Source: Acidobacteriota bacterium
GTDB taxonomy: Bacteria > Acidobacteriota > Terriglobia > Terriglobales > Acidobacteriaceae
Direction: 5' to 3'
Assembly (NCBI GenBank): GCA_021779935.1
Contig: JAJXZT010000003.1
Coordinates: 62,001-126,000, forward strand
Length of the DNA stretch: 64,000 nucleotides
Under the pieces are notes generated by a model. The model was given only the letters and a program-made list of their open reading frames with translations. It ran no database searches and had not been told where the DNA came from. Positions 27,468 to 64,000 of the stretch are shown piece by piece (position 1 is the first letter of the stretch; every line of letters starts with the position of its first letter). The position numbers and the translations under genes are program-made.

Positions 27468-27476
27468 GAGGCGACG

Positions 27477-28724: not shown

Positions 28725-28787
28725 GCCCTGAACCGTAACCATCAACGAGAAGGACGTCAGCGATCCGCTGGCGAAATGGAGGATCGG

Positions 28788-29615: not shown

Positions 29616-29618
29616 TCT

Positions 29619-30440: not shown

Positions 30441-30445
30441 TTGGC

Positions 30446-32004: not shown

Positions 32005-32084
32005 ACGGCCTCGCCACACTCCTGGCGAGGAGTCTCGGACTCCTCGCCTTTCTTTCCGCTGTTGCTGCACGGGAAGGAGGCCCA

Positions 32085-32381
32085 GTGTTTGCCAACGCCG
32101 TCTTTGTCGCCACGCTAATCTTCCTTGCGCTCGGCATCTGGCTAAGCGGTGAACTGCGTTTTCTTACACCCTGGCGAAGCCTCATCGTTCACAGCTATGC
32201 GCGCGCTGTCATCGCCTATTGCCTCTTGCTATTTGTCAATATCTTGGGACTCACGATTTGGATGGAACGCAAATTCTTCCTTCGCGACGCCGGTCGCAAA
32301 CTTAAACACCTCGAACAGGAGATTCACAGTGGTCACAACGAACTCTCAGAAGAAATCACCGCGCAATTCGACGAAGAATGA
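32085..32381 (+). CDS. Small two-helix membrane protein
   Basis: 98 residues from GTG 32085, with AAGGAGG upstream. Two membrane segments (FVATLIFLALGIWLSGEL and VIAYCLLLFVNILGLTIWM) precede a charged helical tail (KLKHLEQEIHSGHNELSEEI). Unknown function; possibly an accessory of the transfer apparatus. It overlaps the next gene by 53 bases. Confidence 0.6.
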   Translation: MFANAVFVATLIFLALGIWLSGELRFLTPWRSLIVHSYARAVIAYCLLLFVNILGLTIWMERKFFLRDAGRKLKHLEQEIHSGHNELSEEITAQFDEE

Positions 32382-32757
32382 AAGGACTTCCCATGCCCCG
32401 ACGGCACCGGAAACACCCCGCCCCAAACCTTCTGTGGGACCGGATGATGAACGGTATCTGGATCATTCCTCAGATCTCGTAGCGCGCGTACGTGCCGCTC
32501 GCGAAGCCGCACAACGGGAGATGGAAGCCTTCGGCGATGTCTCCGAATACGACACTTGCAAAATTTACGGACAAAGAACCGACATTACCTACGAGGACGC
32601 AGACGACCCAGCAGAACAGCCCGCATCGGGCTCGCAGGGACACAATTCACCTCCCAAAGAAAAACCCAACCATCAGCCGGCTGGAAATGAGCGCCCTCAA
32701 GCTGCCTTTGATTTCACCTCAGCGGAAGCAGATCCGTCCCGGCATGAGGAGGAGTGA
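32329..32757 (+). CDS. Hydrophilic hypothetical protein
   Basis: About 142 residues from GTG 32329, which follows AGGAGATTCACA. The chain is polar and probably disordered (KKSPRNSTKNERTSHAPTAPE) with one helical patch (DLVARVRAAREAAQREMEAFG). No known domain. Its stop overlaps the next ATG (TGATG), which supports that it is translated. Confidence 0.5.
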   Translation: MVTTNSQKKSPRNSTKNERTSHAPTAPETPRPKPSVGPDDERYLDHSSDLVARVRAAREAAQREMEAFGDVSEYDTCKIYGQRTDITYEDADDPAEQPASGSQGHNSPPKEKPNHQPAGNERPQAAFDFTSAEADPSRHEEE

Positions 32758-33758
32758 TGCGACTGGATATTCCGCATGATGTTCCTCGCAAGAGGCAGCC
32801 CGATCCGGCGGAAACTCTCCCACTCGAACCTTCACCCGTGGAGCGTCGCCAGGAGCGTCTACGCGAACAGGCTGATCATCCGCGCGATGTCAGCATTCCC
32901 GGAGCCCAGCGCCACCCGCAGGCCGATCTTACAATCCTTCACGAACGCCCCCGTTCGATTCCCCACGATCAGCGGCCTCCACGGAACCATATTCCGGCCC
33001 AAGCCATTGGTATCTCGCTGCGCTCCGAAGAGCTCAAGGTGCTTGCAGAGGTAGGCCGGTTCCGTGTGATCTCCACCCACGACCTGGCGGAAACGGTGTA
33101 CAACAACCGGCCGTTGAGGTTGAAACGTGATCTTGCTTTCCTCAAGGAGCAAGGACTCATCCAAATTGATGCCGTTCAGGCGCGGCGTGACGGCCGTCGT
33201 GGACACAGCAAACGTATCGAGGTCGTTACCCTGACGCGCGCCGGCAAGGAAGTAGCGCGCCAGACTTCCTGCCTCCCAGAAGGCCAAAAGCTCTACTCCG
33301 GACTGGTGAAGCCACGCGAAGTCGAACACGACTCACAGATCTATCGTGCATACCGGAAGGAAGCCGAGCACATCGAAGGTGCCGGAGGGACGAACCTCCG
33401 CGTCGCACTCGACTTCGAACTGAAAGCAAAGATTCAGAAAGCAATTTACGCCGAGCGCAAAGCCGACCCCGACCGGGACTTGCAGGAGATCAAACAACAA
33501 GTTGCCACACAGTTCGACTTCCCATTCGTCAATGGGGGGATTCAGATTCCCGACGCTCGCATCCAATACGACCTTGATCAGGGGGCACGCACCGGATTCC
33601 AGGACGTTGAGGTTCTAACCGCGGCTTACCGCCCAGGCCATCTTCGCAACAAAGCGCAAGCGGGCTTTCACGTATACGCATCCGCCGCCGACCGTGCCAC
33701 GCTGACCGCAAAAATCGAAGACGATCATCACCTGATCGAGAACATTCTGGAGCTATAG
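32757..33758 (+). CDS. Winged-helix protein, replication-relaxation-like
   Basis: 333 residues. After a polar N-terminus (about 1-85) comes a winged helix: SEELKVLAEVGRFRVISTHDLAETVY, then RDLAFLKEQGLIQI and VVTLTRAGKEVARQ. This pattern matches the Replic_Relax family of plasmids and conjugative elements, required for plasmid replication or DNA relaxation. The C-terminal part has PDARIQYD, QDVEVLTA and RNKAQAGF, which could be a PD-(D/E)xK-like nuclease fold (inference). GAGGAG precedes the start. With the next gene it is the best candidate for the element's DNA-processing protein. Confidence 0.6.
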   Translation: MRLDIPHDVPRKRQPDPAETLPLEPSPVERRQERLREQADHPRDVSIPGAQRHPQADLTILHERPRSIPHDQRPPRNHIPAQAIGISLRSEELKVLAEVGRFRVISTHDLAETVYNNRPLRLKRDLAFLKEQGLIQIDAVQARRDGRRGHSKRIEVVTLTRAGKEVARQTSCLPEGQKLYSGLVKPREVEHDSQIYRAYRKEAEHIEGAGGTNLRVALDFELKAKIQKAIYAERKADPDRDLQEIKQQVATQFDFPFVNGGIQIPDARIQYDLDQGARTGFQDVEVLTAAYRPGHLRNKAQAGFHVYASAADRATLTAKIEDDHHLIENILEL

Positions 33759-33761
33759 CTC

Positions 33762-34622
33762 ATGACCGTCGATCCCATCGTCGCCCTTGAATCGCTCGGT
33801 TACACCGAGCGCGAGGCTTCGTTTTTGTATCTCGTGGCTGTTCACTCCGGCTACTTTCTTCGACGCCAGTTTGACTACTTCATCGACCGGAATAAGGGCT
33901 CGATTGTCATGCGGCTCCTGGAGAAGGCGCGCGTTGCGGGACACATTGAGCTCCTCGACACTACGCATCGGCGGCAGGTCTATCACCTCTTCTATAAGCC
34001 TATCTACCGGCTCATCGGCGCCCCGAATTCCCAGAACCGCCGCGTCAAGGGCGATGCTGATGTCCGGGCCAGGCTGATGAAGCTGGACTACGTGCTCGAA
34101 AATGACCACGAGCATTATCTCGAAAACGATGCGGAGAAACTTGAATACCTGGCACAAACACGCGGAGTTGCCTCCGAAATCCTCGTAACGTCCAACGGAA
34201 CGCTCCGCCCGGAAATTCGATCCCTATTGGTTTCGGTGGCCGACAGGACCCGGCCGGCCACCTCGCTTGTGCGCTTTATGTTTATCGACGAAGGGTTGCT
34301 CACCACGAACAAGTTCGGGCGTGTACTGGCGGCTTTGAGCGCTGTGATGCGGGCCGTGGCGCACTTCGAGCTAATTTACGTTGCGACATCCGACCACAAC
34401 TTTCGCGAGGCGGCCGCCCTATTTCATAAGACGTTTGCTGCCGCGCCTCCGCAAAGACAGCAGCCGCTCGATCCTGAATGGACAAGAACTGACCAGAAAC
34501 TCTCCCAACTCACGCCGCCGTTTCATCCACAGTTCACAACTGTGCTGCTCCGGTTCAGCTACCCGTCCTTCCAAAGGAATGAACCGCATGGTTCCCGGCA
34601 CGGTTCGGAGGTTGTCCAATGA
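33762..34622 (+). CDS. Hypothetical protein with winged-helix-like N-terminus
   Basis: 286 residues. The start GYTEREASFLYLVAVHSGYFLRRQFDYFI and IVMRLLEKARVAGHIELL look like a winged helix that reads much like its upstream neighbour's. The middle is charged and helical (ENDHEHYLENDAEKLEYLAQ), the end has FRFSYPSFQRNEPHG-like polar sequence. It starts three bases after the previous stop. Not recognised beyond this; likely works with the previous protein in DNA processing. Confidence 0.55.
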   Translation: MTVDPIVALESLGYTEREASFLYLVAVHSGYFLRRQFDYFIDRNKGSIVMRLLEKARVAGHIELLDTTHRRQVYHLFYKPIYRLIGAPNSQNRRVKGDADVRARLMKLDYVLENDHEHYLENDAEKLEYLAQTRGVASEILVTSNGTLRPEIRSLLVSVADRTRPATSLVRFMFIDEGLLTTNKFGRVLAALSAVMRAVAHFELIYVATSDHNFREAAALFHKTFAAAPPQRQQPLDPEWTRTDQKLSQLTPPFHPQFTTVLLRFSYPSFQRNEPHGSRHGSEVVQ

Positions 34623-34663
34623 ACCGATTGCTGCTCAGACAGTTACCAAATAGCTGGGGTCGG

Positions 34664-34726
34664 CCGGGGGCGGGAGCGACCCGTCCCGCAGGGACTGCCG
34701 TTGACGCTGGTCGCTCCCGCCCCCGG
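34664..34726. repeat. Perfect 18-bp inverted repeat, possible oriT
   Basis: Left arm 34664-34681, CCGGGGGCGGGAGCGACC. Right arm 34709-34726, its exact complement read backwards. The loop is 27 bases. It lies in the only sizable gap between the winged-helix genes and the coupling-protein unit. Such repeats beside mobilisation genes often mark a transfer origin. A weak frame (34619-34837) overlaps it and has a possible ribosome site, but its sequence is made of the repeat. Confidence 0.6.
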
Positions 34727-34833
34727 GCTCCGGGTTGGTACCGAACTCATACCGACGTTGGGATCTGGCAAGGACCGTTACAGGTCCCAGCTAAGTCCTC
34801 CACAACGGTTGCCGCAACAGCAGGGAGAACAAC

Positions 34834-35151
34834 ATGAGCAAGCTAAAGATTGAACATGGGGCAAGCAAACTTCACTGGGTATTGCTCAAGACCAATATTG
34901 AAGTATCGATCTCGACTGACATTGACCTGATGTGCAAGTGGTCGGATAACGACCGCAGATACGTGGTCAACGAACTCCTCCGTTTCGCCCTCACGCAGTC
35001 CGAAGATTTTCAAAAATACAAGGCGGAGTTGCAGCCAGGGCCTCCCAAGGTCGCAAGTCCAGTCAGACCCGTCCCCGTTACGGCCAACGCTGCACATGAC
35101 CGTCCACCAAAACCAGGCGGGCTTCCGGCTCCAACAACGAGCAGCCGATGA
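34834..35151 (+). CDS. Small hypothetical protein before the coupling protein
   Basis: 105 residues, with AGGGAG before the ATG. The N-terminal half, LHWVLLKTNIEVSISTDIDLMCKWSDNDRRYVVNELLRFALTQ, has a short strand followed by two helices, as in ribbon-helix-helix-like DNA binders. The tail is proline-rich and probably disordered. Ends 17 bases before the coupling protein. Possibly a relaxosome accessory; this is inferred from position. Confidence 0.5.
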   Translation: MSKLKIEHGASKLHWVLLKTNIEVSISTDIDLMCKWSDNDRRYVVNELLRFALTQSEDFQKYKAELQPGPPKVASPVRPVPVTANAAHDRPPKPGGLPAPTTSSR

Positions 35152-35168
35152 CTTAAAGAAGGCAACAC

Positions 35169-37205
35169 ATGCGGATTCCGACGATACTTCAAGAACTCAC
35201 ACGGGGGCTGATTGAACACCGCCGCCTGATATCGATTGGCTTGAGCCCGGCTTGCGGATTAGTGCTTCAGAGCATCTATCCCATCCGCGAGTCCAATTCC
35301 CTGTTGCAACTGATTGCACTCAAGCGGCCCTTCGTCTATCAGGGACTCGTCTGGAGCTACACTCTGTTTCTTTACACCACCCCATTTCTTATCAGCTCTA
35401 TCTTGTTCTCACTGGCCTATGTTCACCTCTACACTCCAGACGCCGCAAGCACTGCGGGACGCCTGCCGAAGTACCCTGATCCACGCTTCCGGCGGAACCT
35501 GTTCCTGGTTGTCGGTGAGGTCCATCTACAGATTCGGCCCGGGCCCTCGCCAGACCCGCATTGGCTTCTGATCCCTGAACATGGCCTGTACACGGGAATC
35601 GCCGTGCTCGGTGCGACCGGCTCCGGTAAAACCCAGGCCTTGATACTGCCGGCCATGCGACAGCTTTTTGCCTATCGGGCAGATGATCCCGAAAGAAGAC
35701 CGTCCGGGATCGTTCTCGAAGTGAAAGGCGATCTCTGCCGGCAACTGCAAGGAGTTCTCCAAGGCTGCGACCGCCTGGACGATTACATCGACGTCTCGCT
35801 TGACGGAAACGTCCGCTATAACCCGCTCAACAATGACCTCGATCCGTACGCCCAGGCGTTCAACATTGCCTCAATCATCACTGCGATTTGGGGACGGGGC
35901 AAGGAGCCATTCTGGCAACAGTCGTACACCGACCTTGTCCGGTACATCATCCTCTTGCATCGGGTCAGGGATGACTACGTCACCTTGCTCGATGTCTTCC
36001 GCACCGTCATCAGTGCCAGCGCCTTGGAACGAATGCTGATCGAAGTCGGACGCACTTTCACCGATAGCCGGTATCTCGGAATCAGTGAGGCGGTGTACCG
36101 GAAGCACATGACGTCTTTGGAACTATTTGGCTTCCGCAAAAACAGACAAACCGGTGAGTACATCACGCGTTGGAGTGACGAACTGGAAACGGTCCTGATC
36201 CACGAAACGGGCGCAGTCGCAAATCTATACATGCGACGGCTTGGTGAGTCGTCGTTATGTGACCGATTCCGAAGCATCGAGTACTGGTACTGGGAACACT
36301 GGAAGTTCTTTCGTTCCGAGGTCAAAACTTCCATCATTCAGGGCATTGCCGTCTTCCTTTCCTTGTTCGAGACCGATCCGGATGTGCGGCGCGTCTTCTG
36401 CCCGCCGAAGGCCCTGTACGAGGGCAAGAAATGCGACGCAGATCCGCAGGGCTGGGTGCTGCCGCCATTTGACGAACTGATCGAATCCGGAAAGATCGTG
36501 GGACTGAACTTCCCTGTGGCCCTCAATCCGGCTCTGGCCAAGGTCGTCGGTACCCTGATGAAGATCGACTACCAGCGCGCCGTGCAATTGCGTATACCGA
36601 AGATGGACGCCGAGCCGGATCGACATTTTCGACCGACCGTGTTCATCTGCGACGAATATCAGAACTATGCAACGGTGGGAGGAGACAACCCGACGGGCGA
36701 TGAGCGATTCCTCTCGATCTCCCGGCAGCCGAAATGCATCCCAATTGTGGCCACACAGAGCGTCTCCTCACTAAAAGAGGCTTTACCGAACGAAGGCGTC
36801 AAGACCTTGCTCCAGGCGTTCCGCACAAAGATTTTCCTGTCCACTTCCGACCCGGACACAGCACGCTTCGCATCGGAGATTTGCGGTAAAACCGACCGTA
36901 CTCGGATCAGTTACACCGTATCGGAATCCAGTACGAATCCCAACGTCGGTTGGCTCAGTGGCCGAACGTCATCCAACAAGGGCTCCGTCTCGGCCTCGAA
37001 GCAGTACCAGAAACACAAAGAGCCGCTGTTCGACGAGCGCGTGTTCTTCGAGTTGAAGAATGCACAGGCGGTCGCCGCTGTCTTTGACGGTGTCACCCCG
37101 CACGCTGCAACTTACTGTTATCTGAAGCCCGACTTTCTGCCCATGGATATGACGTGGTTTGAGCAGGAGAGTATCGGCTTCAATCCCCAGAGGGCACGGA
37201 AATGA
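35169..37205 (+). CDS. VirD4/TraG-type coupling protein
   Basis: 678 residues. Two N-terminal membrane segments (LISIGLSPACGLVLQSIY; LFLYTTPFLISSILFSLAYV) precede the ATPase. Walker A is GATGSGKT near 148-155; Walker B is VFICDEYQNY near residue 490. It is followed by FLSISRQPKCIPIVATQSVSS and IFLSTSDPDTARFASEICGK, motifs of TraG/VirD4. It brings the DNA-protein substrate to the secretion channel. Overlaps virB11 by four bases. Confidence 0.92.
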   Translation: MRIPTILQELTRGLIEHRRLISIGLSPACGLVLQSIYPIRESNSLLQLIALKRPFVYQGLVWSYTLFLYTTPFLISSILFSLAYVHLYTPDAASTAGRLPKYPDPRFRRNLFLVVGEVHLQIRPGPSPDPHWLLIPEHGLYTGIAVLGATGSGKTQALILPAMRQLFAYRADDPERRPSGIVLEVKGDLCRQLQGVLQGCDRLDDYIDVSLDGNVRYNPLNNDLDPYAQAFNIASIITAIWGRGKEPFWQQSYTDLVRYIILLHRVRDDYVTLLDVFRTVISASALERMLIEVGRTFTDSRYLGISEAVYRKHMTSLELFGFRKNRQTGEYITRWSDELETVLIHETGAVANLYMRRLGESSLCDRFRSIEYWYWEHWKFFRSEVKTSIIQGIAVFLSLFETDPDVRRVFCPPKALYEGKKCDADPQGWVLPPFDELIESGKIVGLNFPVALNPALAKVVGTLMKIDYQRAVQLRIPKMDAEPDRHFRPTVFICDEYQNYATVGGDNPTGDERFLSISRQPKCIPIVATQSVSSLKEALPNEGVKTLLQAFRTKIFLSTSDPDTARFASEICGKTDRTRISYTVSESSTNPNVGWLSGRTSSNKGSVSASKQYQKHKEPLFDERVFFELKNAQAVAAVFDGVTPHAATYCYLKPDFLPMDMTWFEQESIGFNPQRARK

Positions 37206-50271: not shown

Positions 50272-53200
50272 GCTTCAATTGACGCCCGCGCACAGCGGGC
50301 GACGACGCAATCGACAACGTCCACTTGGCCGACGATGTTTCAATCCACGCCCGCGCACAGCGGGCGACGTGATCGGCGACCCGGTCTACCAGGCCCTGAT
50401 CGTTTCAATCCACGCCCGCGCACAGCGGGCGACGATGTGAATAGGAGACTGCTTGATTGCCTCAATGTTTCAATCCACGCCCGCGCACAGCGGGCGACTC
50501 GCGCTGGATTTCTGATGAGGCATCCGGTCTGCGTTTCAATCCACGCCCGCGCACAGCGGGCGACTCGTTCTCGGCGAGCCACTGTTCGGCCAGGGCAATG
50601 TTTCAATCCACGCCCGCGCACAGCGGGCGACATTAGCCGGATTGGAGAGTTCACGGCTCCAAGCGGTTTCAATCCACGCCCGCGCACAGCGGGCGACGTC
50701 AATGAGCGTGGAACAGCGCAGCAATCGCTAGCGTTTCAATCCACGCCCGCGCACAGCGGGCGACTAGACGTTTTCCAGTGAGTACTTGCGGAACATCTTG
50801 TTTCAATCCACGCCCGCGCACAGCGGGCGACATCGAGGATCCGCGTGCGGTGTTTCAGTTCCCGGAGTTTCAATCCACGCCCGCGCACAGCGGGCGACGG
50901 CTGACATAAGCAATTCTTTCGTGAGGTACTTCGTTTCAATCCACGACCGCGCACAGCGGGCGACTTTCACGCGGCGGTTAAGCAAGTTTGCCCTCGAGGT
51001 TTCAATCCACGCCCGCGCACAGCGGGCGACGTCCATCCTGGTACGCACGTTGGACGTTCGACTGTTTCAATCCACGCCCGCGCACAGCGGGCGACTTCCG
51101 CGCCGTGTTTCGCACTCCCGGCCCGTTTTGTTTCAATCCACGCCCGCGCACAGCGGGCGACGCTCTCGCAATACCTCATCCTCCGCCGGGCTCCAGTTTC
51201 AATCCACGCCCGCGCACAGCGGGCGACACTCACTGCGGGTGACTCCTCGGCAGACATGCTGTTTCAATCCACGCCCGCGCACAGCGGGCGACCTTGAGGC
51301 AACCAGCATCTCCTACTGGTGCTACTCGTTTCAATCCACGCCCGCGCACAGCGGGCGACTTCTTTGCGTCAGTAGCTTTCTTGTAGGCTTCCTTGTTTCA
51401 ATCCACGCCCGCGCACAGCGGGCGACGCCGTTCGCCGCAATTACAAGGCAGAAATCCTCGTTGTTTCAATCCACGCCCGCGCACAGCGGGCGACGACTAT
51501 GTCAATCCACATTACATTCCTCCTTTGGTGTTTCAATCCACGCCCGCGCACAGCGGGCGACTTGTTCGTTGGTTCTGAAATGCAGGTCGTCGCGTGTTTC
51601 AATCCACGCCCGCGCACAGCGGGCGACCCGGAAAGCTCTATGCAAAGAACCGTGGCCTCCTGTTTCAATCCACGCCCGCGCACAGCGGGCGACTGCCTGT
51701 TCCAAATTGGGAATAGTGGTCGAGAACCGTTTCAATCCACGCCCGCGCACAGCGGGCGACGCCGGGGGCGGGTTCCCTCCTAACCCCGCAGAACGCGTTT
51801 CAATCCACGCCCGCGCACAGCGGGCGACCCAATATGGCCTCGACACCTCCGAGGGGGACGTTGTTTCAATCCACGCCCGCGCACAGCGGGCGACGCCGAG
51901 GTTGTTGACCCAATGCCCGTTCCCCGCTGTTTCAATCCACGCCCGCGCACAGCGGGCGACCAGCCTCGGCTCGGAACATTTCCAAAAACATTAGGGTTTC
52001 AATCCACGCCCGCGCACAGCGGGCGACCAGCCTCGGCTCGGAACATTTCCAAAAACATTAGGGTTTCAATCCACGCCCGCGCACAGCGGGCGACCACCAC
52101 ACATAAGGGCCTCCAAACACTTTGCGACGTTTCAATCCACGCCCGCGCACAGCGGGCGACGTCAAGTACAAAATATGGGGCTAGCGAGATACGGTTTCAA
52201 TCCACGCCCGCGCACAGCGGGCGACCAACCTTCCGGTAGTCTTTGCCGTTATCTTGGTAGTTTCAATCCACGCCCGCGCACAGCGGGCGACGACGTACGC
52301 GAGTGGAAACCGATGCATCTCTTTCGTTTCAATCCACGCCCGCGCACAGCGGGCGACAAATTGCACGGCGGACCCGGTGACGGCCGATGGGTTTCAATCC
52401 ACGCCCGCGCACAGCGGGCGACTGGAGGAGTTCCGCTTGACCGACCGCGGCTGGCGTTTCAATCCACGCCCGCGCACAGCGGGCGACAACGCTGCCGACG
52501 GGCGAGCCGATCCGCACGCGCGTTTCAATCCACGCCCGCGCACAGCGGGCGACGCCGGCGGAGACGCTGCTGACACCGTGCCAACAGGTTTCAATCCACG
52601 CCCGCGCACAGCGGGCGACGAGATGGAACCGTTTGCAAGAGTGGCCTACGAGATGTTTCAATCCACGCCCGCGCACAGCGGGCGACGTTCACGCCTGCGG
52701 GCTATAACCAGGTGAACGTGTTTCAATCCACGCCCGCGCACAGCGGGCGACTTCACTTCCTCCACCTTAGTGATTCGGTCAGCGTGTTTCAATCCACGCC
52801 CGCGCACAGCGGGCGACACCACGCATAAGGGTCTGCAAACACTTTGCGATGTTTCAATCCACGCCCGCGCACAGCGGGCGACGAACAATCCAGAAGCCTT
52901 TGATGGACTTACGGGGTTTCAATCCACGCCCGCGCACAGCGGGCGACAATGGACGCGTGGCGGAACTGCTGGGGCAACTGGTTTCAATCCACGCCCGCGC
53001 ACAGCGGGCGACCAACACTCAGGTGCCCCCACGAGGTTACCAAAGAGTTTCAATCCACGCCCGCGCACAGCGGGCGACGGATGGACGCGTAGAAAGGTCG
53101 AAATACAATGACCGTTTCAATCCACGCCCGCGCACAGCGGGCGACGCCACACCAATGACGCGATTATTGCGTTGTGCGAGTTTCAATCCACGCCCGCGCA

Positions 53201-56200
53201 CAGCGGGCGACCTGCTCATCTCCGACGATGACGGCGTGACGTGGAAGTTTCAATCCACGCCCGCGCACAGCGGGCGACAGAGAAACAGTCAGCGCGATGC
53301 ACGACACCATGGTTTCAATCCACGCCCGCGCACAGCGGGTGACCTGCTCATCTCCGACGATGACGGCGTGACGTGGAAGTTTCAATCCACGCCCGCGCAC
53401 AGCGGGCGACAGAGAAACAGTCAGCGCGATGCACGACACCATGGTTTCAATCCACGCCCGCGCACAGCGGGCGACTACCCCGCGCGCGTCAAGGCAGCAG
53501 TCGACGCCATGTTTCAATCCACGCCCGCGCACAGCGGGCGACGCGGAGAGGCGCAGGCATCAAGCCGTGGCTCGCTGTTTCAATCCACGCCCGCGCACAG
53601 CGGGCGACACGCAGACATTTGTGGCAGAGGACCTGTACCAGGTTTCAATCCACGCCCGCGCACAGCGGGCGACCCAGCCTTCACCCACCAACACCTGGTC
53701 AAGCTCGTTTCAATCCACGCCCGCGCACAGCGGGCGACGTCCCTGATAGCCAGCGGTGCCGCGTCAACGGGAGTTTCAATCCACGCCCGCGCACAGCGGG
53801 CGACGATGTTTTTGTGTAAGTTGGTGAGCACGTACCCGTTTCAATCCACGCCCGCGCACAGCGGGCGACGTAACGTGTCGCCCGTGATAGCCCAGGGTGT
53901 GTTGTTTCAATCCACGCCCGCGCACAGCGGGCGACGCCGTGGTTGCGATATATAAAAACAGCATGATCCAGTTTCAATCCACGCCCGCGCACAGCGGGCG
54001 ACAGGATATACGAGTGCTGAAGGCCGGGCAGATTGTGTTTCAATCCACGCCCGCGCACAGCGGGCGACTCTCCGAGGAGGAATTCTGGGAGCGCACGCCG
54101 CTCGTTTCAATCCACGCCCGCGCACAGCGGGCGACATCGAGTATTTTGGGCCAAACGGCAATCTGAAAGCGTTTCAATCCACGCCCGCGCACAGCGGGCG
54201 ACGGCTCGCGCGCGCCATCGGCGCCAGCCGCGCCAGTTTCAATCCACGCCCGCGCACAGCGGGCGACGTCGATCCTGTGGATGGTGCCGACGTTAGACCT
54301 GGCGTTTCAATCCACGCCCGCGCACAGCGGGCGACATATGCGCAATCGCAAATTCAGGCCGATTGGGAGTTTCAATCCACGCCCGCGCACAGCGGGCGAC
54401 ATTCCATTGCCGTCGCTCGACGGCGCCGCGCAGGGTTTCAATCCACGCCCGCGCACAGCGGGCGACGTCCTACACGGGCGTCCGTGATGAAATATTTTGG
54501 TTTCAATCCACGCCCGCGCACAGCGGGCGACGAACGGCGTGCAGAACGAAGTGCGCATGGGTGTCGTTTCAATCCACGCCCGCGCACAGCGGGCGACGCC
54601 AGGAACGGAGCGACGTTGCGCGGCGTCCGGCGTTTCAATCCACGCCCGCGCACAGCGGGCGACTGCGAGCGGCTATGCATCGCTCGATGCGACGACGTTT
54701 CAATCCACGCCCGCGCACAGCGGGCGACACAACGAGGTTGCCGGGTATCCCGGCTTCAGCTCGTTTCAATCCACGCCCGCGCACAGCGGGCGACAGCCTT
54801 CGGCTTCGGAGGCGCGGGCACGGCGTTATTGTTTCAATCCACGCCCGCGCACAGCGGGCGACGTGGCGCGCGGGCGCGGCGTGAACATCGCGTCTGTGTT
54901 TCAATCCACGCCCGCGCACAGCGGGCGACGACTGGCGTGGGGATTCTCGCGAAAAACCTGGCGTTTCAATCCACGCCCGCGCACAGCGGGCGACGCCGGA
55001 CAACGGTCCGGCGTTCAAGTGTCATCTCGTTTCAATCCACGCCCGCGCACAGCGGGCGACCCGAGATACTCGGCAAATGCGTCATCTACCGTGTTTCAAT
55101 CCACGCCCGCGCACAGCGGGCGACGACAGTGTCCGTTAAACTGATGCAGCGCGCGTGGGTTTCAATCCACGCCCGCGCACAGCGGGCGACGCATTGCTGG
55201 CAGCATTCCTGATGAGGATATTGGTTTCAATCCACGCCCGCGCACAGCGGGCGACGCCCAGCCTCCTGGCGAGCTTCGCGGCCGGTTGGGGTTTCAATCC
55301 ACGCCCGCGCACAGCGGGCGACGTTGTGTAAGTGCGCCGGTACGGACCTTGACAACGTTTCAATCCACGCCCGCGCACAGCGGGCGACGGCAACATCCGA
55401 ACGGCAACTTCGGCGAGTTTGTGTTTCAATCCACGCCCGCGCACAGCGGGCGACCATTTGCCTGCATCGGACCAAACAAGGCCACGAGTGTTTCAATCCA
55501 CGCCCGCGCACAGCGGGCGACGTCGCGCGGATGGGGACAGTGGATGCGCGGTCCCGTGTTTCAATCCACGCCCGCGCACAGCGGGCGACTTCGAGGGAGG
55601 CGCGGCATGGCTGATCCCAAAGTGTTTCAATCCACGCCCGCGCACAGCGGGCGACGTCCACACCAGCGTCGCGGCGCCGGTCTGTTTGGGTTTCAATCCA
55701 CGCCCGCGCACAGCGGGCGACGCCATACGTTTTCCTCCCTGCGAATTTTACAGCGTTTCAATCCACGCCCGCGCACAGCGGGCGACCAAAACGCCGTTTG
55801 ACCAGGTCATCGCCGAACTGTTTCAATCCACGCCCGCGCACAGCGGGCGACCAAGAGCTTCGGTTGCAGGTGGCGCGCGAGCAGGTTTCAATCCACGCCC
55901 GCGCACAGCGGGCGACGCGCTGCAAGCGCCTGCACCGGACGGCGTGGAAAGTTTCAATCCACGCCCGCGCACAGCGGGCGACCTCGAAGCCACGGAGGCG
56001 ATGGGAAAACTCGCGCAGTTTCAATCCACGCCCGCGCACAGCGGGCGACGCCGGCATGGCTTCGCTCGCGCACGCGTGTGCGCAGTTTCAATCCACGCCC
56101 GCGCACAGCGGGCGACGGAAGCGCGTGTTGATTTGCTGCAACGCGGCGTCGTTTCAATCCACGCCCGCGCACAGCGGGCGACTTGCATGACGGCCTCCTT

Positions 56201-56975
56201 TCGCTATTTGCAGTACGGTTTCAATCCACGCCCGCGCACAGCGGGCGACGGTGCCGCTTGCCATCGGCGTCGTACCAGTCGGCGTTTCAATCCACGCCCG
56301 CGCACAGCGGGCGACGGAGCGGACTTTGGGCCTGAAAATTTGTTGTGGAGGTTTCAATCCACGCCCGCGCACAGCGGGCGACGAAAAAGCGCTTCTTCGT
56401 GGTCCGGCATGGATAGTTTCAATCCACGCCCGCGCACAGCGGGCGACGCGAGATCACGCGCAAAAAACGAGAGTGACTCGGTTTCAATCCACGCCCGCGC
56501 ACAGCGGGCGACCGCCAGTTCGTTCACCGTGTAAACGGAGTCGCCCTGTTTCAATCCACGCCCGCGCACAGCGGGCGACGCGCAACAGAGTAGAACTCGC
56601 GCGTGTGACCGCAGTTTCAATCCACGCCCGCGCACAGCGGGCGACGCATGCTTCGTTCGATGACGCCGGCGCAGTTGCTTGTTTCAATCCACGCCCGCGC
56701 ACAGCGGGCGACCTCGCTGCCGAGTCCACGCAGGCGCTCGACAAGGCGTTTCAATCCACGCCCGCGCACAGCGGGCGACGTTGCAGGCACAACAGCGATC
56801 CCATCGCGAATAGGTTTCAATCCACGCCCGCGCACAGCGGGCGACTCGCGCGGCGTCGCACATGATGCTCCCAGTTATGTTTCAATCCACGCCCGCGCAC
56901 AGCGGGCGACCAGGCATAGATGCCGCGATCCCCGCGGATCTTCGTTTCAATCCACGCCCGCGCACAGCGGGCGAC
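50272..56975 (-). CRISPR. Type I-C CRISPR array, 102 repeats
   Basis: Hand count: 102 copies of a 32-base repeat, 101 spacers of 32-36 bases. On the plus strand it starts GTTTCAATCCACGCCC and ends AGCGGGCGAC; on the minus strand it ends GTGGATTGAAAC, the type I-C form. The copy at 50272 differs at three of its first ten bases and is the oldest end. Copies at 50933 (CACGACC) and 53312 (GGGTGAC) have one change each. The spacer at 51961 is repeated at 52028. A two-spacer unit (53212-53311) is repeated at 53344-53443. Transcription from the leader at 56976-57153 would run leftward. Confidence 0.98.
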
Positions 56976-57153
56976 TGCGGAGCGTTAACTCCACAGCACA
57001 CAACTACTTATCATCCGCTTTGCGCGGACCCCCGGCAAGTACACTATCGAAGATTCCATTCGTTAAGGTAAATACACGCTAAGTCTTACATTCTGAATGC
57101 TGAATGTTGCTTCGCGGATCTACGAGTAGTTGACTGTTCGCTTGGGGTTCGCG
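56976..57153 (-). promoter_or_regulatory. CRISPR leader
   Basis: 178 bases between the stop of cas2 and the last repeat, on the side where the repeats are intact. It is richer in A and T than its surroundings and contains GAATGCTGAATG. It should carry the array promoter and the site where new spacers are added. No gene is here. Confidence 0.75.
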
Positions 57154-57444
57154 CTAGAGGATAAGAGGTCCCTGAGGATCGTAACCAGGACGGGCCCCTA
57201 CATGTTCCACATGGCTTCGCCAGTTGGCCCCGAGAAAGTAGAAACGCAGACTGTCTTCCCCTGGATCGATCTCACGTTCCAGTTGAGCGCGAAATGCTGT
57301 CCATTGTGCAGGATCAACAATGCATTCGAAAACCGACCACTGTACGCGCTGCCCGTAGTTCTGACAGAGTCGCGCTACTCGGCGCAGCCTTCGCTTGCCC
57401 GTTTCTGATTCTGTGTGGACATCGTATGTGACCAGCACCATCAT
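57154..57444 (-). CDS. cas2: Cas2
   Basis: 96 residues. It begins MMVLVTYDV, with the conserved aspartate of the Cas2 ferredoxin fold, followed by RRLRRVARLCQNYGQRVQWSVFECIVDPAQW and ends with the short C-terminal strand. Cas2 dimers bridge two Cas1 dimers in the complex that inserts new spacers. It lies three bases after the cas1 stop and next to the leader. GGAGGTAGCGC precedes the start. Confidence 0.96.
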   Translation of the reverse strand: MMVLVTYDVHTESETGKRRLRRVARLCQNYGQRVQWSVFECIVDPAQWTAFRAQLEREIDPGEDSLRFYFLGANWRSHVEHVGARPGYDPQGPLIL

Positions 57445-57447
57445 GCG

Positions 57448-58479
57448 CTACCTCCAGAAGAATGCCGGATACGCATCCAAGTCGCCGCGAATGTGGCGAG
57501 CCAATAACAGCGACTGCACATATGGCAGGAGTCCGAAGGCGACGCGCTCACCCAAGTATGGATGCTGAATTTCCTCTTGCTTGCGTTTTTGCCATGCAAC
57601 GAGGATCTCTTTGCGTGTCGCGTCGTTCATCTGGACTGCGCCTGATTCTGATTTCTGAAATCCTTCGGCTGTCGCCTGGCGGCGATTGATGAGGGAGAGT
57701 ACGAGCCGGTCCACGAGCACCGGGCGCAGCTCTTCCATTAGGTCGAGCGCAAGGCTGGGCCGTCCAGGACGGTCAACGTGCAAATAGCCTACGCAGGGAT
57801 CGAGGCCGACGGACTCCAATGCTGCGGCAACGTCGTGCGTCAGCAGAGTATAGAGAAAAGAGAGTAGAGCGTTGACATTATCGAGCGGTGGACGGCGGCT
57901 ACGCTCGCAAAAGAAGAATTGGTCCTTGGAGACAAGGATCAGCGAATCAAAGGCGGAGAAGTATATCCTTGCGGCATCGCCCTCCAATCCTCGCATGGTG
58001 TCCAAATCTTCAGACCGTTCAATGACGGGAAGCAGACGGAGTAGTTCGCCTGACGCACGCGAGAGCACGTCGACCTCTTCGGGACCGGCGTGCTCGCGGG
58101 CTCCACGTTGCAATACCGTACGGCAATTCGCTACCTTGCCGAGTACGATGGCACGGGCGATGCGAGCTGCTGACTGCGAGCTATCAGCCATGCGATATTG
58201 CTGGCGTCGAAGCAGTACGTTTCCACGCACCGCTCCGGTTACGCGGGCAAGATATCTGCCGTGTTCGGAGAGGAATGAGACTGACACATCGTGTTCCGCA
58301 CACAGGCCAAGAAGGGGAGGCGAACACGAGACTACGCCAAAGCATACAATGCCCGAAAGCGTGTGGATTGGCACACGCAATCGGTTCTCTTGCTCCACGC
58401 GAACCAACACGCACTCGCCGTCACGCGCAAGATAGCTGCCTTGCGTGGTAACGAAAAGAGTATTCAGCAAGGCACGCAC
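57448..58479 (-). CDS. cas1: Cas1 integrase
   Basis: 343 residues from GTG 58479. The start is set by homology to the usual N-terminus (here VRALLNTLFVTTQGSYLARDGE) and by AAGGAG upstream; the open frame runs further 5' inside cas4. Active-site landmarks are E in GLEGDAARIYF, H in VGYLHVDRPGR and D in LALDLMEELRPV. It catalyses spacer insertion at the leader end with Cas2. Confidence 0.96.
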   Translation of the reverse strand: MRALLNTLFVTTQGSYLARDGECVLVRVEQENRLRVPIHTLSGIVCFGVVSCSPPLLGLCAEHDVSVSFLSEHGRYLARVTGAVRGNVLLRRQQYRMADSSQSAARIARAIVLGKVANCRTVLQRGAREHAGPEEVDVLSRASGELLRLLPVIERSEDLDTMRGLEGDAARIYFSAFDSLILVSKDQFFFCERSRRPPLDNVNALLSFLYTLLTHDVAAALESVGLDPCVGYLHVDRPGRPSLALDLMEELRPVLVDRLVLSLINRRQATAEGFQKSESGAVQMNDATRKEILVAWQKRKQEEIQHPYLGERVAFGLLPYVQSLLLARHIRGDLDAYPAFFWR

Positions 58480-58480
58480 C

Positions 58481-59122
58481 CTATTTCTCCTTGAGGATCG
58501 CGGCGACCATCCTCGCCGTGTAGTTGGACACTTGCCTACTGGTGGTCTGCTCTGGCAGGCATACATCTTTCAGAGAACATTTTTCACAATGGGGACCCAA
58601 AATCGCCGCGGGCGTCACGCCAGCGTTCTGCAACTCGTGGAGGCGTGCGGCAAGCCGTTCGGTCTCGCCGCGCAATGAGGAATCAAAAATAAGCCCCATA
58701 CGCCGTCGCGGCTCGCCATAGAAGATCGCACCTTCCGGCACTGGAACCTTCAGCATTTCTTCAAGGCAAAGCGCCTGACCACATATCTGCACTTCGTCCC
58801 AGCGTCCAGGCTTCGGCCGTCCGTGCTTGTACTCAACCGGAAACGGACGCCCTGGACCGCTACGCTGAGGATGGAATTCCACCACGTCGGCCACGCCCAC
58901 CAGTCCCAAGCGCAGAGACCGAAGACGCAAGCCTCGGCAGATGCGCACGCCATCCCGCCACTCATCCGAGCCCTCATGGGCGCGCTCATGCATCTGACGG
59001 CCCTCAGCGGTGAGGCGGTTCTCTGTCCACTGCTGCTCGAGATGAATCAATGCCCACTGCCGTTCGCAGAACGCCAAGTGCTGAAGCGCCGAGAGCGGCA
59101 GCAGGTCATCCTCGGTATACAC
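58481..59122 (-). CDS. cas4: Cas4 exonuclease
   Basis: 213 residues from GTG 59122, whose product begins MYTEDDLLPLSALQHLAFCERQWALIHLEQ, the usual form for type I-C Cas4. A more upstream TTG (59146) overlaps cas7 and is less likely. The four cysteines for the [4Fe-4S] cluster are present: C19 and the C-terminal trio in HCEKCSLKDVCLP. The RecB-like nuclease core includes FPVEYKHGRP. It trims spacers and selects the PAM side. Confidence 0.94.
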   Translation of the reverse strand: MYTEDDLLPLSALQHLAFCERQWALIHLEQQWTENRLTAEGRQMHERAHEGSDEWRDGVRICRGLRLRSLRLGLVGVADVVEFHPQRSGPGRPFPVEYKHGRPKPGRWDEVQICGQALCLEEMLKVPVPEGAIFYGEPRRRMGLIFDSSLRGETERLAARLHELQNAGVTPAAILGPHCEKCSLKDVCLPEQTTSRQVSNYTARMVAAILKEK

Positions 59123-59130
59123 TGCGGCCT

Positions 59131-60099
59131 CTACACGTAGCGCCAAACGGAGACGCCAGGCACGATCTCAGTGCCGTCTTCCGGCGGCGTAAATGTGTAA
59201 TCAGAAAAGACGCGAGGTGTCTTGACTGGCGGAATCACAACCTTCTCAAACAAGCGGTGCGCCGGAGCATCACCAAGCTTCTTTGAGTGTTCGAAGAGGT
59301 AAAGCCCTCGCACTTCCATCTCGCCGCGAGAGGCAGAGCGGTCAAGGTCGAAGAGATGTTCGAGCGCTTCAAGTAGTATGCCGAGGTCTCGTTTTTTGAA
59401 ACCTGTCTCTTCGCCGAGGAATGGCGAAATGAATCCATGCGTCCGATAGAGTGCATACGGAACGGCATATTTGCGGCCCATCTGTCCGCTCGCCGCTTTC
59501 TCGTCGCCGCCTTCACTTAGAACTGCCGTCTGTCCGGAATCGGTGGCGTTCGTTAGCGCCACGCGTGTAATGGTGTGTCCGATGGCAAGAATAGGATCGA
59601 TCGAACGCCCGAAACTTAGTTGCACGGGGCCGCGCACTTGTCCGCAATTCCACAGTTTAGTTTCGCCGCGCCCGCGACGGCCCTTGCGCGCTTCGTCATC
59701 GGACTCAGCTTCGGCCTTGCCGGTGGTCATTACGGCCCCAAACGTACGAATGTCAAAGTAGTTTTCGCACATCCATCTCCGGGCCGTCTCATTCGGCCGG
59801 TTCTCGGGCTCGATATTGTTAGCCTTATAGGCTTCTCGCTGTTCGTTGGCGAGAATGCCGCGCTCCTTCACATATATGTTGTCCGGCGGCTTCAACCCAC
59901 GCGTAAGGGTGACGTAGTTGCGAATCTTGCGCTTGATGCAAACATCCGTGACAATGCCGTGACCGGTTTCCGGATCGACGCGGGGCGCGTTGTCAGCGTC
60001 GGGGTCACCATTCGGGTTGCCGTTTGTTATGTCATACAACAGGACAAACTCGTAACGCCTATCCAGCGGATCATTGCTGTCGAATACCGGTCGGCTCAT
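59131..60099 (-). CDS. cas7c: Cas7c (Csd2) backbone protein
   Basis: 322 residues. The RAMP-type core RRYEFVLLYDITNGNPNGDPDADNAPR and the glycine-rich RTFGAVMTTG match Cas7 of type I-C. Multiple copies coat the crRNA spacer in the Cascade complex. Start overlaps the cas8c stop by four bases (ATGA). The inserted charged stretch ESDDEARKGRRGRGE is also common in this family. Confidence 0.96.
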   Translation of the reverse strand: MSRPVFDSNDPLDRRYEFVLLYDITNGNPNGDPDADNAPRVDPETGHGIVTDVCIKRKIRNYVTLTRGLKPPDNIYVKERGILANEQREAYKANNIEPENRPNETARRWMCENYFDIRTFGAVMTTGKAEAESDDEARKGRRGRGETKLWNCGQVRGPVQLSFGRSIDPILAIGHTITRVALTNATDSGQTAVLSEGGDEKAASGQMGRKYAVPYALYRTHGFISPFLGEETGFKKRDLGILLEALEHLFDLDRSASRGEMEVRGLYLFEHSKKLGDAPAHRLFEKVVIPPVKTPRVFSDYTFTPPEDGTEIVPGVSVWRYV

Positions 60100-61868
60100 T
60101 GGGTATCTCCTTCATTCAAGACTTGTGTCGGGTCGGCTTGCGCAGACTGCGGCGTTGGGGCCTTTCGAAAGAAGGCCTGTCGCTGGTGATAGTAACCGAG
60201 GGCGAATCGCCCTTGTTGTGCGATATCCAAGGTGGGCTCGAACTGCGCGGGGAACCCATCCATGATCTCTCCGGTGAGTTTCCTGTACCAATCGGGATTT
60301 CGGTTGGCCGGGACCTTGGCTAGATGCGCCTGGCTCAGCCGGAGAAGTTGCGGAAATACGGTGCCGGGGCGAGTGGAAGCGGCACCGTAGAAACGGTCAA
60401 CGATTGTCGAGTTCACCCCGGGGTTGGCTAGCGACTGGATACGCTCCAGCACTGCGAACAACCGTCCGAGAAGATACCCAGCGTCGTGAAACTCCGTGTT
60501 GAGGCTCATACGAGGGACCTCCGGATTAATCTGCGAAAAGTAAAGTTGTAGTAAGGCGGCTCGTGCAGGTGTGACCGCCTGCTCCGCACGGTTACGGGTT
60601 ACCGCTGCGCTCAAGATTAGCCGTGGAATGGGCAGACCTAGCACAGCAGCCAGAAAAACTTCACCCGGAAGCTTCGGCGGCAAGCGGTCAAGCTTCTCGA
60701 GTGGGGCCAGCGATTTCAGCAGCCAGAACAAGGGCATTGGCCTGTCACTATCTACACCGTCGAGTTCGAGGGCGTTGAAGTACTTGGCGAGCGAGTCCTC
60801 GACCTCGGCGACAGTTCCCGTGTGAACGCTGCGCAGCATAGCCCGGCCCTGCGCGCCGCTCAGAATCATGCAGTAGAAGTTTCCTTCAAGCTTCTCGGCG
60901 CTCTTCCCTGTTTTCGGCGAGAGCAGCGCAGCTTTGAGGTCGGCAGGTTGGTTGAGAATCCATGTAAGCTGGCTAGCCAAGCTCCAAGGCTCGTCCGTCC
61001 AGAAGACCGCTGTTGTATCTGGAGAAAGCCGCACTGCCTGCTGGCCCATCATCTCTGAAGCGTCGTGCGGATTCGCATATCGCTCATTCAGGCAGCGGCG
61101 CAGGCCTTCTACGTATGCCGTCATGCAGGGACGGCACACCGGGGCGTTTTCGTTGCCAGAAAAACCATATTTTTCAAACGCTGCGGCATTAAAACTTACG
61201 AGTGGGACGCCGCTCGTAACTCCTCCTGGAATCCTCAAAGAATCATGGTTCTCAACTGGAACACATTGCGCACCACACACAACACACTGACGCAGAGTCG
61301 CTTCGGGATTTGGAGATTCATTTGCCTGTACGGTCCACCATTGTCGAATTTCTGGGTCGTGATGTAGAAGTTCCAAGTTGCAAGCAATTGCAAACAAATC
61401 GTTGCTGGCCCATTTGTTCCTGTTAAGTTCAGCCGCGCACGCCACTCGCTGCTCCTCGCTTCGCAGAAACGCAACCGCTGAACGCAACAACTTTGAACCA
61501 GTTTCTTCGGCGGCTTTCGTTATAAGTTTCAGGAAAAGAAGGCGGCACTTCTCCGATTTATCAGCTCTCTTCGACGGGATTTTTCCTTCGGGAACGATGC
61601 CGAGCACATACTCGGACTTGTCCACGAGAAAGTCCGCCTCAAGATTTGAGCTTCTTCCGCATCTCCTGGGAATCGACATCAACTGCGGCTGAGGTCTTTG
61701 CTTGCGCCCCTTCCCGTCTGACACCGGGTCAGCAAGAGTTGATACGAGATTGAGAAACCGGCCTCCATCGTCGATGTTGATGATCCATGCCACTCCTTTC
61801 CCCTCAAAGGCTGGTTCTGAGACCAGTTCCTCACGCAGGGCCAGGTCGCGCAACGAAGCGAGAATCAT
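60096..61868 (-). CDS. cas8c: Cas8c (Csd1) large subunit
   Basis: 590 residues from ATG 61868, which follows GGAGGAAGTC and overlaps the cas5 stop (ATGA). It begins MILASLRDLALREELVSEPAFEGKGVAWII, typical for Csd1. A CxxC pair (CVVCGAQC) and a second (CRPC) form the zinc-like insert. It recognises the PAM and starts target unwinding. An in-frame upstream ATG four codons earlier lacks a ribosome site. Confidence 0.95.
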   Translation of the reverse strand: MILASLRDLALREELVSEPAFEGKGVAWIINIDDGGRFLNLVSTLADPVSDGKGRKQRPQPQLMSIPRRCGRSSNLEADFLVDKSEYVLGIVPEGKIPSKRADKSEKCRLLFLKLITKAAEETGSKLLRSAVAFLRSEEQRVACAAELNRNKWASNDLFAIACNLELLHHDPEIRQWWTVQANESPNPEATLRQCVVCGAQCVPVENHDSLRIPGGVTSGVPLVSFNAAAFEKYGFSGNENAPVCRPCMTAYVEGLRRCLNERYANPHDASEMMGQQAVRLSPDTTAVFWTDEPWSLASQLTWILNQPADLKAALLSPKTGKSAEKLEGNFYCMILSGAQGRAMLRSVHTGTVAEVEDSLAKYFNALELDGVDSDRPMPLFWLLKSLAPLEKLDRLPPKLPGEVFLAAVLGLPIPRLILSAAVTRNRAEQAVTPARAALLQLYFSQINPEVPRMSLNTEFHDAGYLLGRLFAVLERIQSLANPGVNSTIVDRFYGAASTRPGTVFPQLLRLSQAHLAKVPANRNPDWYRKLTGEIMDGFPAQFEPTLDIAQQGRFALGYYHQRQAFFRKAPTPQSAQADPTQVLNEGDTQ

Positions 61869-62509
61869 GACTTCCTCCATTCCGGGACCTGCAGAACGCC
61901 GTGCTCTAGGTTTGCCTGGAAAAAGCGCGCCTCGTTATGAATACCGAATTCTATGTCGTGGAGCATCAGCCCCAGCGACCGTGTCTCATCAAGAGCGGCT
62001 GGCGCATCATTGGGCGGCTCAACCCAAGCGGGAAATTCCCGGCAGCCAAGATACGGTTGGTAGTGCTGCTGCCCTCGCTCCAACCGTCGCGTGAACATTT
62101 CACGAAACTTCGATGGATTATCTTCAGCACCACCACGCTCTGTCATGTGAATACGGGCTTCAATTAGATAGTCCACGTCGCGGAGAGCCAATGTGTTTCT
62201 TTGCGCGCGGTCCTCGTCTGCAAAGAACGCTCGTAACGTCGCACCATGCAGAGCGGCGGAGGCCGCATCCCGTGTAGAGATGCGGCTGTTCACTTCATTA
62301 CGGCGGAAGGCAATCCACCGCACAGGCTTGAGCAGAAAAATGCTAAGAATCTCCCAGCGAATAGCTGGCTTCCAAAGAATCGCCTCCAACACGCCACGGG
62401 CCGCAGAGGGAGTGATGATTTCGTAGGAAACTCGCTCGGTGGAGAACTCTGGCCGCGTAAAGCAGGCCATCTCGCCGCGCACGCGCACGCGAAAAGTCGA
62501 ATCAGCCAT
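61865..62509 (-). CDS. cas5c: Cas5c (Cas5d) processing nuclease
   Basis: 214 residues. In type I-C, Cas5 both cuts the repeat RNA and caps the crRNA 5' handle, as there is no Cas6; none is seen here. It begins FRVRVRGEMACFTRPEFSTERVSYEIITPSAARGVLEAILWKP, the family's hallmark, and ends with a RAMP-like FGIHNEARFFQANLEHGVLQVP. GGAGAG lies just before the ATG. Confidence 0.96.
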   Translation of the reverse strand: MADSTFRVRVRGEMACFTRPEFSTERVSYEIITPSAARGVLEAILWKPAIRWEILSIFLLKPVRWIAFRRNEVNSRISTRDAASAALHGATLRAFFADEDRAQRNTLALRDVDYLIEARIHMTERGGAEDNPSKFREMFTRRLERGQQHYQPYLGCREFPAWVEPPNDAPAALDETRSLGLMLHDIEFGIHNEARFFQANLEHGVLQVPEWRKS

Positions 62510-62832: not shown

Positions 62833-64000
62833 TCAGGCGATCAAATGTTCCGGCTCAGGATTTTTCCGTCCCTGCCAACCGAAGCCGTATTGCTCACTGT
62901 AAATGTACTCAGCGCCCTCGCAAACTGCCCAGGCCCGCGCGGCCCCCTTATAGAGCGGCTCAATGACACCGAGGGTATGTAGCTCTTCGATTTCCTTGTC
63001 GTAAAGCTGCACGAAATATCTTTGGAGGGCTCGCAGACTCTGCCGGCTGGGTCCCTCGTGGCGAAGCCGTGCAAGCAATTCCTTCCACCTGCCGAAAGGT
63101 GCAAGTACCGAGTGCCCGTTTTCCTCAATCATGCGGAATTTTTCATCTACCGAGGGAAAATCGAATTCTCTTTCGCAAGTCGCGATTCCGGCGGCGTCGG
63201 TATTCACAATGCGCTCGTCAAGGACGCAGCGAAAGTACTCCGAAAACAGCGCCGGATCGTTCAGATCAAGCTCAAAGCCCGGACGCTTTAGAAATGCAAC
63301 CGACACCTCCAGTTCTCGCCGCAAACTGTTCGAAGGAGGACGTGAGGTTGCGCGGAAGATGTGGAATTCTCCTGGCTGTTCGCCGTCAAGCTCGCGATTG
63401 CAGCGTCCAGCGGCCTGTGCCAATGTTTCCAATCCGGCTAGTGCACGGAACACCACCGGGAAACTGATATCGACGCCTGCCTCGATCAATTGTGTCGCTA
63501 TTAAGCGGCAAGGTTGTTTTGCCCATAGAGTCTCACGAACTCTGCCGAGTACCTGTCTGCGATGAGCGGCACACATCCGTGCGGAAAGATGCCAGCAACC
63601 CTCAACCATTTTCGCTAACTGTTCCGCATCCTTGCGGCTATGAACAATGGCCATCACGCGAGAGTGCTGCTGAAGCTTTTCGGCAAGCTCCTGCAAAGGC
63701 AGAGACTGATCGATTCCGCCTTCCATGACAACACAAAATCGATTCTTCACGACCGCGAAGAATGGTCGGGGATCTGTGATAATCGGACGTGGTTCTGGGT
63801 CCATGCGAGGACCTATTTCCACTCCCGGCTCTGGCGTGGGCTGCGTTGCCGTGCAGTGCACAACAGTTGTGCCGAAATACCGGCTCAGTAGACCAAGAAT
63901 GCGCCGGATGGGAGCCAAGAGGCCTACCGGAAACGTCTGCACCTCATCAAGTACAACAACACTATCTGCGATACTGTGCAGCTTACGGCAGGAGGTTTTT
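62833..64000 (-). CDS. cas3: Cas3 helicase-nuclease (5' part outside window)
   Basis: The frame is open to the end of the window, so 388 C-terminal residues are visible. The Walker B box VVLDEVQTFPV lies at 63930-63960, followed by VHCTATQP (motif III), VMAIVHSRKDAEQLA (motif IV), LIATQLIEAGVDISFPVVFRAL (motif V) and QAAGRCNRE (motif VI). The HD nuclease domain and Walker A are beyond the window. Cas3 is recruited by Cascade to unwind and cut the target. It is the first cas gene in the direction of transcription. Confidence 0.96.
   Translation of the reverse strand, partial: KTSCRKLHSIADSVVVLDEVQTFPVGLLAPIRRILGLLSRYFGTTVVHCTATQPTPEPGVEIGPRMDPEPRPIITDPRPFFAVVKNRFCVVMEGGIDQSLPLQELAEKLQQHSRVMAIVHSRKDAEQLAKMVEGCWHLSARMCAAHRRQVLGRVRETLWAKQPCRLIATQLIEAGVDISFPVVFRALAGLETLAQAAGRCNRELDGEQPGEFHIFRATSRPPSNSLRRELEVSVAFLKRPGFELDLNDPALFSEYFRCVLDERIVNTDAAGIATCEREFDFPSVDEKFRMIEENGHSVLAPFGRWKELLARLRHEGPSRQSLRALQRYFVQLYDKEIEELHTLGVIEPLYKGAARAWAVCEGAEYIYSEQYGFGWQGRKNPEPEHLIA

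What the first reader, a model, noticed from the sequence alone, without database searches (positions are those of the whole stretch)
52095..52850. Two spacers differ only at synonymous third positions
Spacers 52095-52128 and 52818-52850 share 33 aligned bases except at aligned positions 6, 15, 18 and 33, all multiples of three. In that frame both read TTHKGLQTLCD. The four changes are ACA/ACG, GGC/GGT, CTC/CTG and GAC/GAT, all silent. The simplest reading is that two diverged viruses or elements with the same conserved protein were sampled at the same spot and PAM side, at different times. It hints at a lasting arms race with one virus lineage.
Basis: partly seen in the sequence, partly recalled or inferred. 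Interest (0 to 1): 0.75.

Follow-up and report, generated by a model that had tools for sequence, protein, structure and literature searches.

The report
Twin CRISPR spacers with silent differences
A bacterium's CRISPR memory bank holds two nearly identical entries whose four differences would not change the encoded protein, so it probably recorded the same spot in two related invaders; this is a neat but ordinary trace of CRISPR immunity.

Summary
The window holds a 101-spacer type I-C CRISPR array (50272-56975) beside a complete I-C cas operon. Spacer 28 (52095-52128) and spacer 39 (52818-52850) agree at 29 of 33 aligned bases. The four differences are silent in one stop-free frame, TTHKGLQTLCD. 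The similarity itself is far beyond chance (score 26, against a best of 12-15 in five shuffled arrays). The all-silent pattern is moderately unlikely by chance (0.018 over any stop-free frame). Under purifying selection that frame takes 80-98% of the weight among the open frames.

Both spacers end at the same edge on the PAM side. Mutation inside the array is unlikely, because the repeats around them are intact and true duplicate spacers in the array are identical. The best reading is two acquisitions at the same PAM, from two diverged copies of one gene in mobile elements. Array order makes spacer 28 the older.

No target was found in the phage, plasmid, viral-contig or genome searches made. 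The protein, the PAM and the virus are therefore unproven, and a 'lasting arms race' is not shown. Pairs of overlapping old and new I-C spacers against one element are already described (Legionella, PMC5071653). Ordinary, with modest interest.

The parts
50272..56975 (-). Type I-C CRISPR array, 102 repeats of 32 nt and 101 spacers, read leftward
   Evidence: Repeat parse; orientation inferred from the flanking cas genes and the degenerate end repeat
52095..52128 (-). Spacer 28, 34 nt, the older of the pair
   Evidence: age inferred from array order
52818..52850 (-). Spacer 39, 33 nt, the newer of the pair
   Evidence: age inferred from array order
50272..50303 (-). Degenerate repeat (3 substitutions), marks the trailer (old) end
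56976..57153 (-). Presumed leader between array and cas2
   Evidence: Position only; inferred
57154..57444 (-). cas2
   Evidence: TIGR01573, E 2.3e-18
57448..58566 (-). cas1 (type I-C)
   Evidence: TIGR03640 above cut-off, E 9.8e-154
58481..59146 (-). cas4
   Evidence: TIGR00372 above cut-off
59131..60099 (-). cas7/csd2 (type I-C)
   Evidence: TIGR02589 above cut-off
60096..61880 (-). cas8c/csd1
   Evidence: TIGR01863 above cut-off
61865..62509 (-). cas5c/cas5d
   Evidence: TIGR01876 above cut-off
62833..64000 (-). cas3, 3' part; the frame continues beyond the window (729 aa in all)
   Evidence: Pfam PF22590 above cut-off; frame open at the window edge; whole frame L081:833-3022. NCBIfam cas3 models matched only below cut-off

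Best explanation
The host's I-C system acquired a spacer twice at the same PAM-defined position of one conserved gene, from two mobile elements (phage or plasmid) whose copies of that gene had diverged at silent sites. Spacer 28 came first and spacer 39 later, with ten spacers between them. Shown: homology, the shared PAM-side edge, and the silent pattern in one open frame. Inferred: that the sequence is coding, that it came from foreign elements, and that the PAM is GAA on the right (TTC in crRNA orientation). In crRNA orientation the mismatches are at positions 1, 16, 19 and 28, so the older crRNA has one seed mismatch plus three others against the newer target. It would probably interfere poorly with that target, which may have favoured a fresh acquisition, primed or not.
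For: 29 of 33 bases shared, same right edge, and a one-base length difference only on the PAM-distal side. The pair stands far outside the shuffled null. All four differences are silent in one frame: P 0.018 for any stop-free frame, and a likelihood ratio of 17-138 over non-coding for omega 0.05-0.3, with that frame taking 0.80-0.98 of the weight among the five open frames. Complete I-C cas set with an open cas3. In-array mutation is unlikely: 2 substitutions in the 101 repeats other than the end repeat, and three identical duplicate-spacer pairs; P about 3e-4 that four flanking repeats stay unchanged at that divergence. Precedent in a Legionella I-C array (PMC5071653, section 12 read).
Against: No protospacer for either spacer: viral contigs 8 scans, phages, plasmids, spacer 39 in 298 genomes of the order including its own, spacer 28 in 21 including its own, and one pattern scan of genome contigs. 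The exact peptide HKGLQTLCD was found nowhere. The one faint plasmid match to spacer 39 (E = 3) lies in a gene read in the spacer's minus frame 3, not in the proposed frame; I take it as chance. At omega 1 no frame is preferred. Eleven codons is a small sample.
Confidence: 0.7

Rival explanations
1. Both spacers came from one element that carries two diverged copies of the gene (paralogues or repeats), or from one mixed infection, so the pair says nothing about time.
For: Nothing in the array separates the two sources; the ten intervening spacers show order, not elapsed time.
Against: Two paralogues with 11 identical codons and highly diverged silent sites are less usual than two lineages (general expectation, not tested).
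Confidence: 0.13
2. The region is coding in another frame, or not coding, and the silent pattern is chance.
For: P 0.018 is not negligible after a reader has scanned a whole window; four other frames are stop-free. The faint plasmid match (E = 3) is to a gene read in the spacer's minus frame 3, HADPYEW against FADPYAW, and its nearest relative fetched keeps HADPY.
Against: The likelihood favours frame +1; the nearest rival (-2, one amino-acid change) takes 0.02-0.19 for omega 0.05-0.3, and minus frame 3 at most 0.006. The plasmid match has 9-11 of 33 bases different and GTA at the PAM place.
Confidence: 0.12
3. One spacer is a duplicated copy of the other that mutated inside the array.
For: Duplication does occur here: spacers 26/27 and the block 45-46/47-48.
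Against: Those duplicates are identical and adjacent, and the repeats are nearly invariant. This pair also differs in length and lies 11 positions apart.
Confidence: 0.03

Closest known systems
Legionella pneumophila Toronto-2005 type I-C array against LME-1 (PMC5071653; passages and section 12 read)
   Same: Type I-C; two pairs of older and newer spacers target overlapping regions of one element; the older spacer of each pair is compromised by PAM or seed changes; the authors offer naturally primed re-acquisition as one interpretation.
   Different: There the element is known, and escape of LME-1 variants was tested with plasmids (in strain Lens, type I-F). Here no target is known, the pair shares the exact PAM edge, and the differences are four silent changes.
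Primed adaptation in type I CRISPR-Cas (PMC5904413, PMC5059440: search listing only)
   Same: A mismatched old spacer can stimulate new acquisition from the same element.
   Different: Priming is not shown here; one pair cannot separate it from chance re-sampling.

Membership tests
Type I-C CRISPR-Cas | cas3, cas5c, cas8c, cas7, cas4, cas1, cas2 gene set | tested here: met
   NCBIfam I-C models for cas1c, cas7/csd2, cas8c and cas5c above cut-off, and cas4 and cas2 above cut-off; cas3 by Pfam on its 3' part, whole 729-aa frame open. The cas3 part matched NCBIfam cas3 models only below their cut-offs; the rest of cas3 was not scanned.
Type I-C CRISPR-Cas | 32-nt repeat of the GTTTCAATCCACGCCC...GGGCGAC kind with spacers of about 34 nt | tested here: met
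   102 repeats; spacers 32-36 nt. The Legionella I-C repeat in PMC5071653 is similar on the other strand.
Type I-C CRISPR-Cas | TTC PAM next to the protospacer | not testable with these tools
   No convincing protospacer found for these or the other spacers in the searches made
Old/new spacer pair at one protospacer (re-acquisition) | Two homologous spacers with the same PAM-side edge in one array | tested here: met
Old/new spacer pair at one protospacer (re-acquisition) | Target element known; newer spacer matches better than the older | tested here: inconclusive
   Targets sought and not found

The most novel reading that the evidence does not exclude
The older spacer, mismatched at seed position 1, primed re-acquisition of exactly the same protospacer from a silently diverged relative: in-place updating of a memory entry, where synonymous change in the element weakens targeting while the protein is kept.
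Probability: 0.1. Interest if true: 0.45.

Novelty: new member of a known kind. Interest (0 to 1): 0.2.

Why it matters
It is a sequence-only record that one host lineage probably met two diverged copies of the same gene. Such pairs give a reading frame and a likely conserved peptide for an unknown element, and so a handle for finding it. If re-acquisition at the same PAM proved commoner than chance over many arrays, it would test whether priming updates old memory.

Tried and rejected
Peptide-based DNA patterns. The viral-contig scans for THKG[LF]QT[LF]CDE and HKG[LF]QT[LF]CD gave nothing. Looser scans gave 11 different loci (L032-L034; L032, L033 and L064-L067; L068-L070; 10 distinct if L032 and L033, the same stretch, count once). 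All differ from the spacers at 11-19 of 36-37 bases and were judged chance. L032/L033 reads QKGLQTLCDE, but out of frame within a 681-aa frame. L069 has VTHKGLQTLVDS in a 285-aa frame that looks to me like a glycosyltransferase (my recognition; the family search failed); it is a weak lead only. L066 has KGLQTLCDI in an 888-aa frame, but 18 of 36 bases differ. The genome contigs pattern found three HKG[LF]QTFCD stretches in short frames, one of them cut by the locus edge. A seed-sequence scan gave 11 loci with 14-20 mismatches of 37. Frames -3 and -1 as peptide patterns gave nothing; frames +2 and -2 were not scanned so.

Plasmid hit H61 (Desulfosarcina ovata, E = 3). The gene is annotated hypothetical; relatives are named replication proteins. 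It is read in the spacer's minus frame 3, with HADPYEW against FADPYAW. Rejected because 9-11 of 33 bases differ, GTA stands at the PAM place, and in 8 homologues fetched out of 1300 records the best DNA matches have 14-17 mismatches. None of the 21 genomes searched holds this gene.

Other spacers. Spacer 60 has weak hits in four relatives with 3-7 mismatches and no GAA beside them, and in a Halobacterium plasmid (E 4e-3; not examined further); it is G+C-rich. In the phage collection at E up to 0.01 only one record matched the array, in a way that looks like repeats; the others were at E 0.6 or above (40 of 63 records listed). For plasmids 60 of 88 records were listed; the top ones look like other CRISPR arrays, which I did not check one by one.

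Limits: it scored only 2 of some 18-73 first-look candidates per genome, and only the best matches came with loci; the rest were not examined.

An expected-coincidence estimate (assumed 40-kb genome, about 1250 PAMs) shows that a same-PAM pair is not remarkable if some 20-40 spacers come from one lineage: 0.15-0.62 pairs.

Full report
What is there. The stretch 50272-56975 is a CRISPR array of 102 repeats (32 nt) and 101 spacers of 32-36 nt. To its right, all on the minus strand, stand cas2, cas1c, cas4, cas7, cas8c, cas5c and cas3. The cas3 frame continues past the window end and is 729 aa long. The set is that of type I-C. The only strongly degenerate repeat is the leftmost, at 50272. Leader and growth therefore most likely lie at the right, crRNAs are read leftward, and low spacer numbers are old.

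The pair. Spacer 28 (52095-52128) and spacer 39 (52818-52850) agree at 29 of 33 aligned bases and share the right edge; spacer 28 has one more base on the left. Differences at 6, 15, 18 and 33 are A/G, C/T, C/G and C/T. In the plus frame both read TTHKGLQTLCD. Among 5050 spacer pairs on both strands it is the top pair that is not identical, with score 26; the next is 13, and five shuffles gave maxima of 12-15. No other overlapping pair stands out from the shuffles.

How strong is 'synonymous'? Four random substitutions are all silent in some stop-free frame in 1.8% of 100,000 simulations, and in this frame in 0.67%. A likelihood comparison with omega 0.05-0.3 favours the frame over non-coding by 17 to 138 and gives it 80-98% of the weight among five open frames; at omega 1 there is no preference, as there should be. 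The nearest rival is minus frame 2, with one change (Trp/Cys). The coding reading is thus likely but not proven.

Silent divergence is high: 4 of about 8 synonymous sites, 95% interval 0.16-0.84. This points to long-separated lineages more than to a recent escape mutant.

Origin. Mutation within the array is unlikely: outside the end repeat only 2 base changes occur in 101 repeats, the true duplicates (26/27, 45/47, 46/48) are identical, and this pair differs in length. Two acquisitions at one PAM explain the common right edge and the variable left edge. From PMC5071653, where 20 of 22 new I-C spacers had a GAA PAM immediately downstream (passage read), the PAM here should be GAA after the right edge; that it maps to this side is my inference from the repeat orientation. 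It was not tested, for lack of a target.

Search for targets. None was found. Viral contigs: 8 scans, only matches judged chance. Phages. Plasmids: with one E = 3 hit to spacer 39 rejected after comparison with eight homologues. That hit counts mildly against the proposed frame, since its gene is read in the spacer's minus frame 3. Genomes: spacer 39 with up to 3 mismatches in 298 genomes of the order, found only in its own array; spacer 28 in 21 genomes, likewise. The array against its own genome gave, besides itself, only matches at E 0.089 or more. The whole array against 298 genomes matched 31 of them including its own; most matches look like other arrays with similar repeats, not checked one by one, and few candidates per genome were scored. 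A scan of the loci held at that point gave six matches within 8 mismatches outside the window's own genome array, none with GAA directly after it.

Mechanism and meaning. In crRNA orientation the mismatches are at positions 1, 16, 19 and 28. Position 1 is in the seed (positions 1-5, 7, 8, as given in PMC5071653), so the old crRNA is probably weak against the newer target. This fits the Legionella case, where older spacers with PAM or seed changes are followed by newer perfect ones. A chance estimate with an assumed 40-kb element shows that such coincidences need no special process if 20-40 spacers come from one lineage (0.15-0.62 expected pairs). Priming remains possible but is not needed.

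Literature. Searches turned up one closely fitting paper, PMC5071653 (passages and section 12 read); other papers were seen as listings only. I make no claim that silent-only spacer pairs are absent from print.

Verdict. A true and well-spotted observation whose reading is likely in its main part, but of an ordinary kind, with the target unknown and the arms-race claim untested.

Noticed in passing
51961-52062: Spacers 26 and 27 are identical: tandem duplication of one repeat-spacer unit.
   Followed up: partly
53212-53443: Spacers 45-46 are repeated exactly as 47-48 (two-unit duplication); the repeat between the blocks at 53312 carries one substitution (GGGTGAC).
   Followed up: partly
50933-50964: One internal repeat with a single substitution (CACGACC for CACGCCC).
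   Followed up: no
G000:C13:109768-110622 (outside the window): A second Cas1 homologue in the same genome (33% identity), in a 702-aa open frame; possibly a different CRISPR type or a fusion.
   Followed up: no
24253-37205: Type IV secretion or conjugation genes (VirB4/TrbE-like at 24253-26721, coupling-protein-like at 35169-37205) to the left of the array.
   Followed up: no
L035 (G081:C20:20869-24809): A genome of the same family has a 3.9-kb match to the array at 64% identity, which suggests a long array of similar repeats.
   Followed up: no
54203-54235: Spacer 60 is G+C-rich and gives weak matches in four relatives and a Halobacterium plasmid (E 4e-3).
   Followed up: partly
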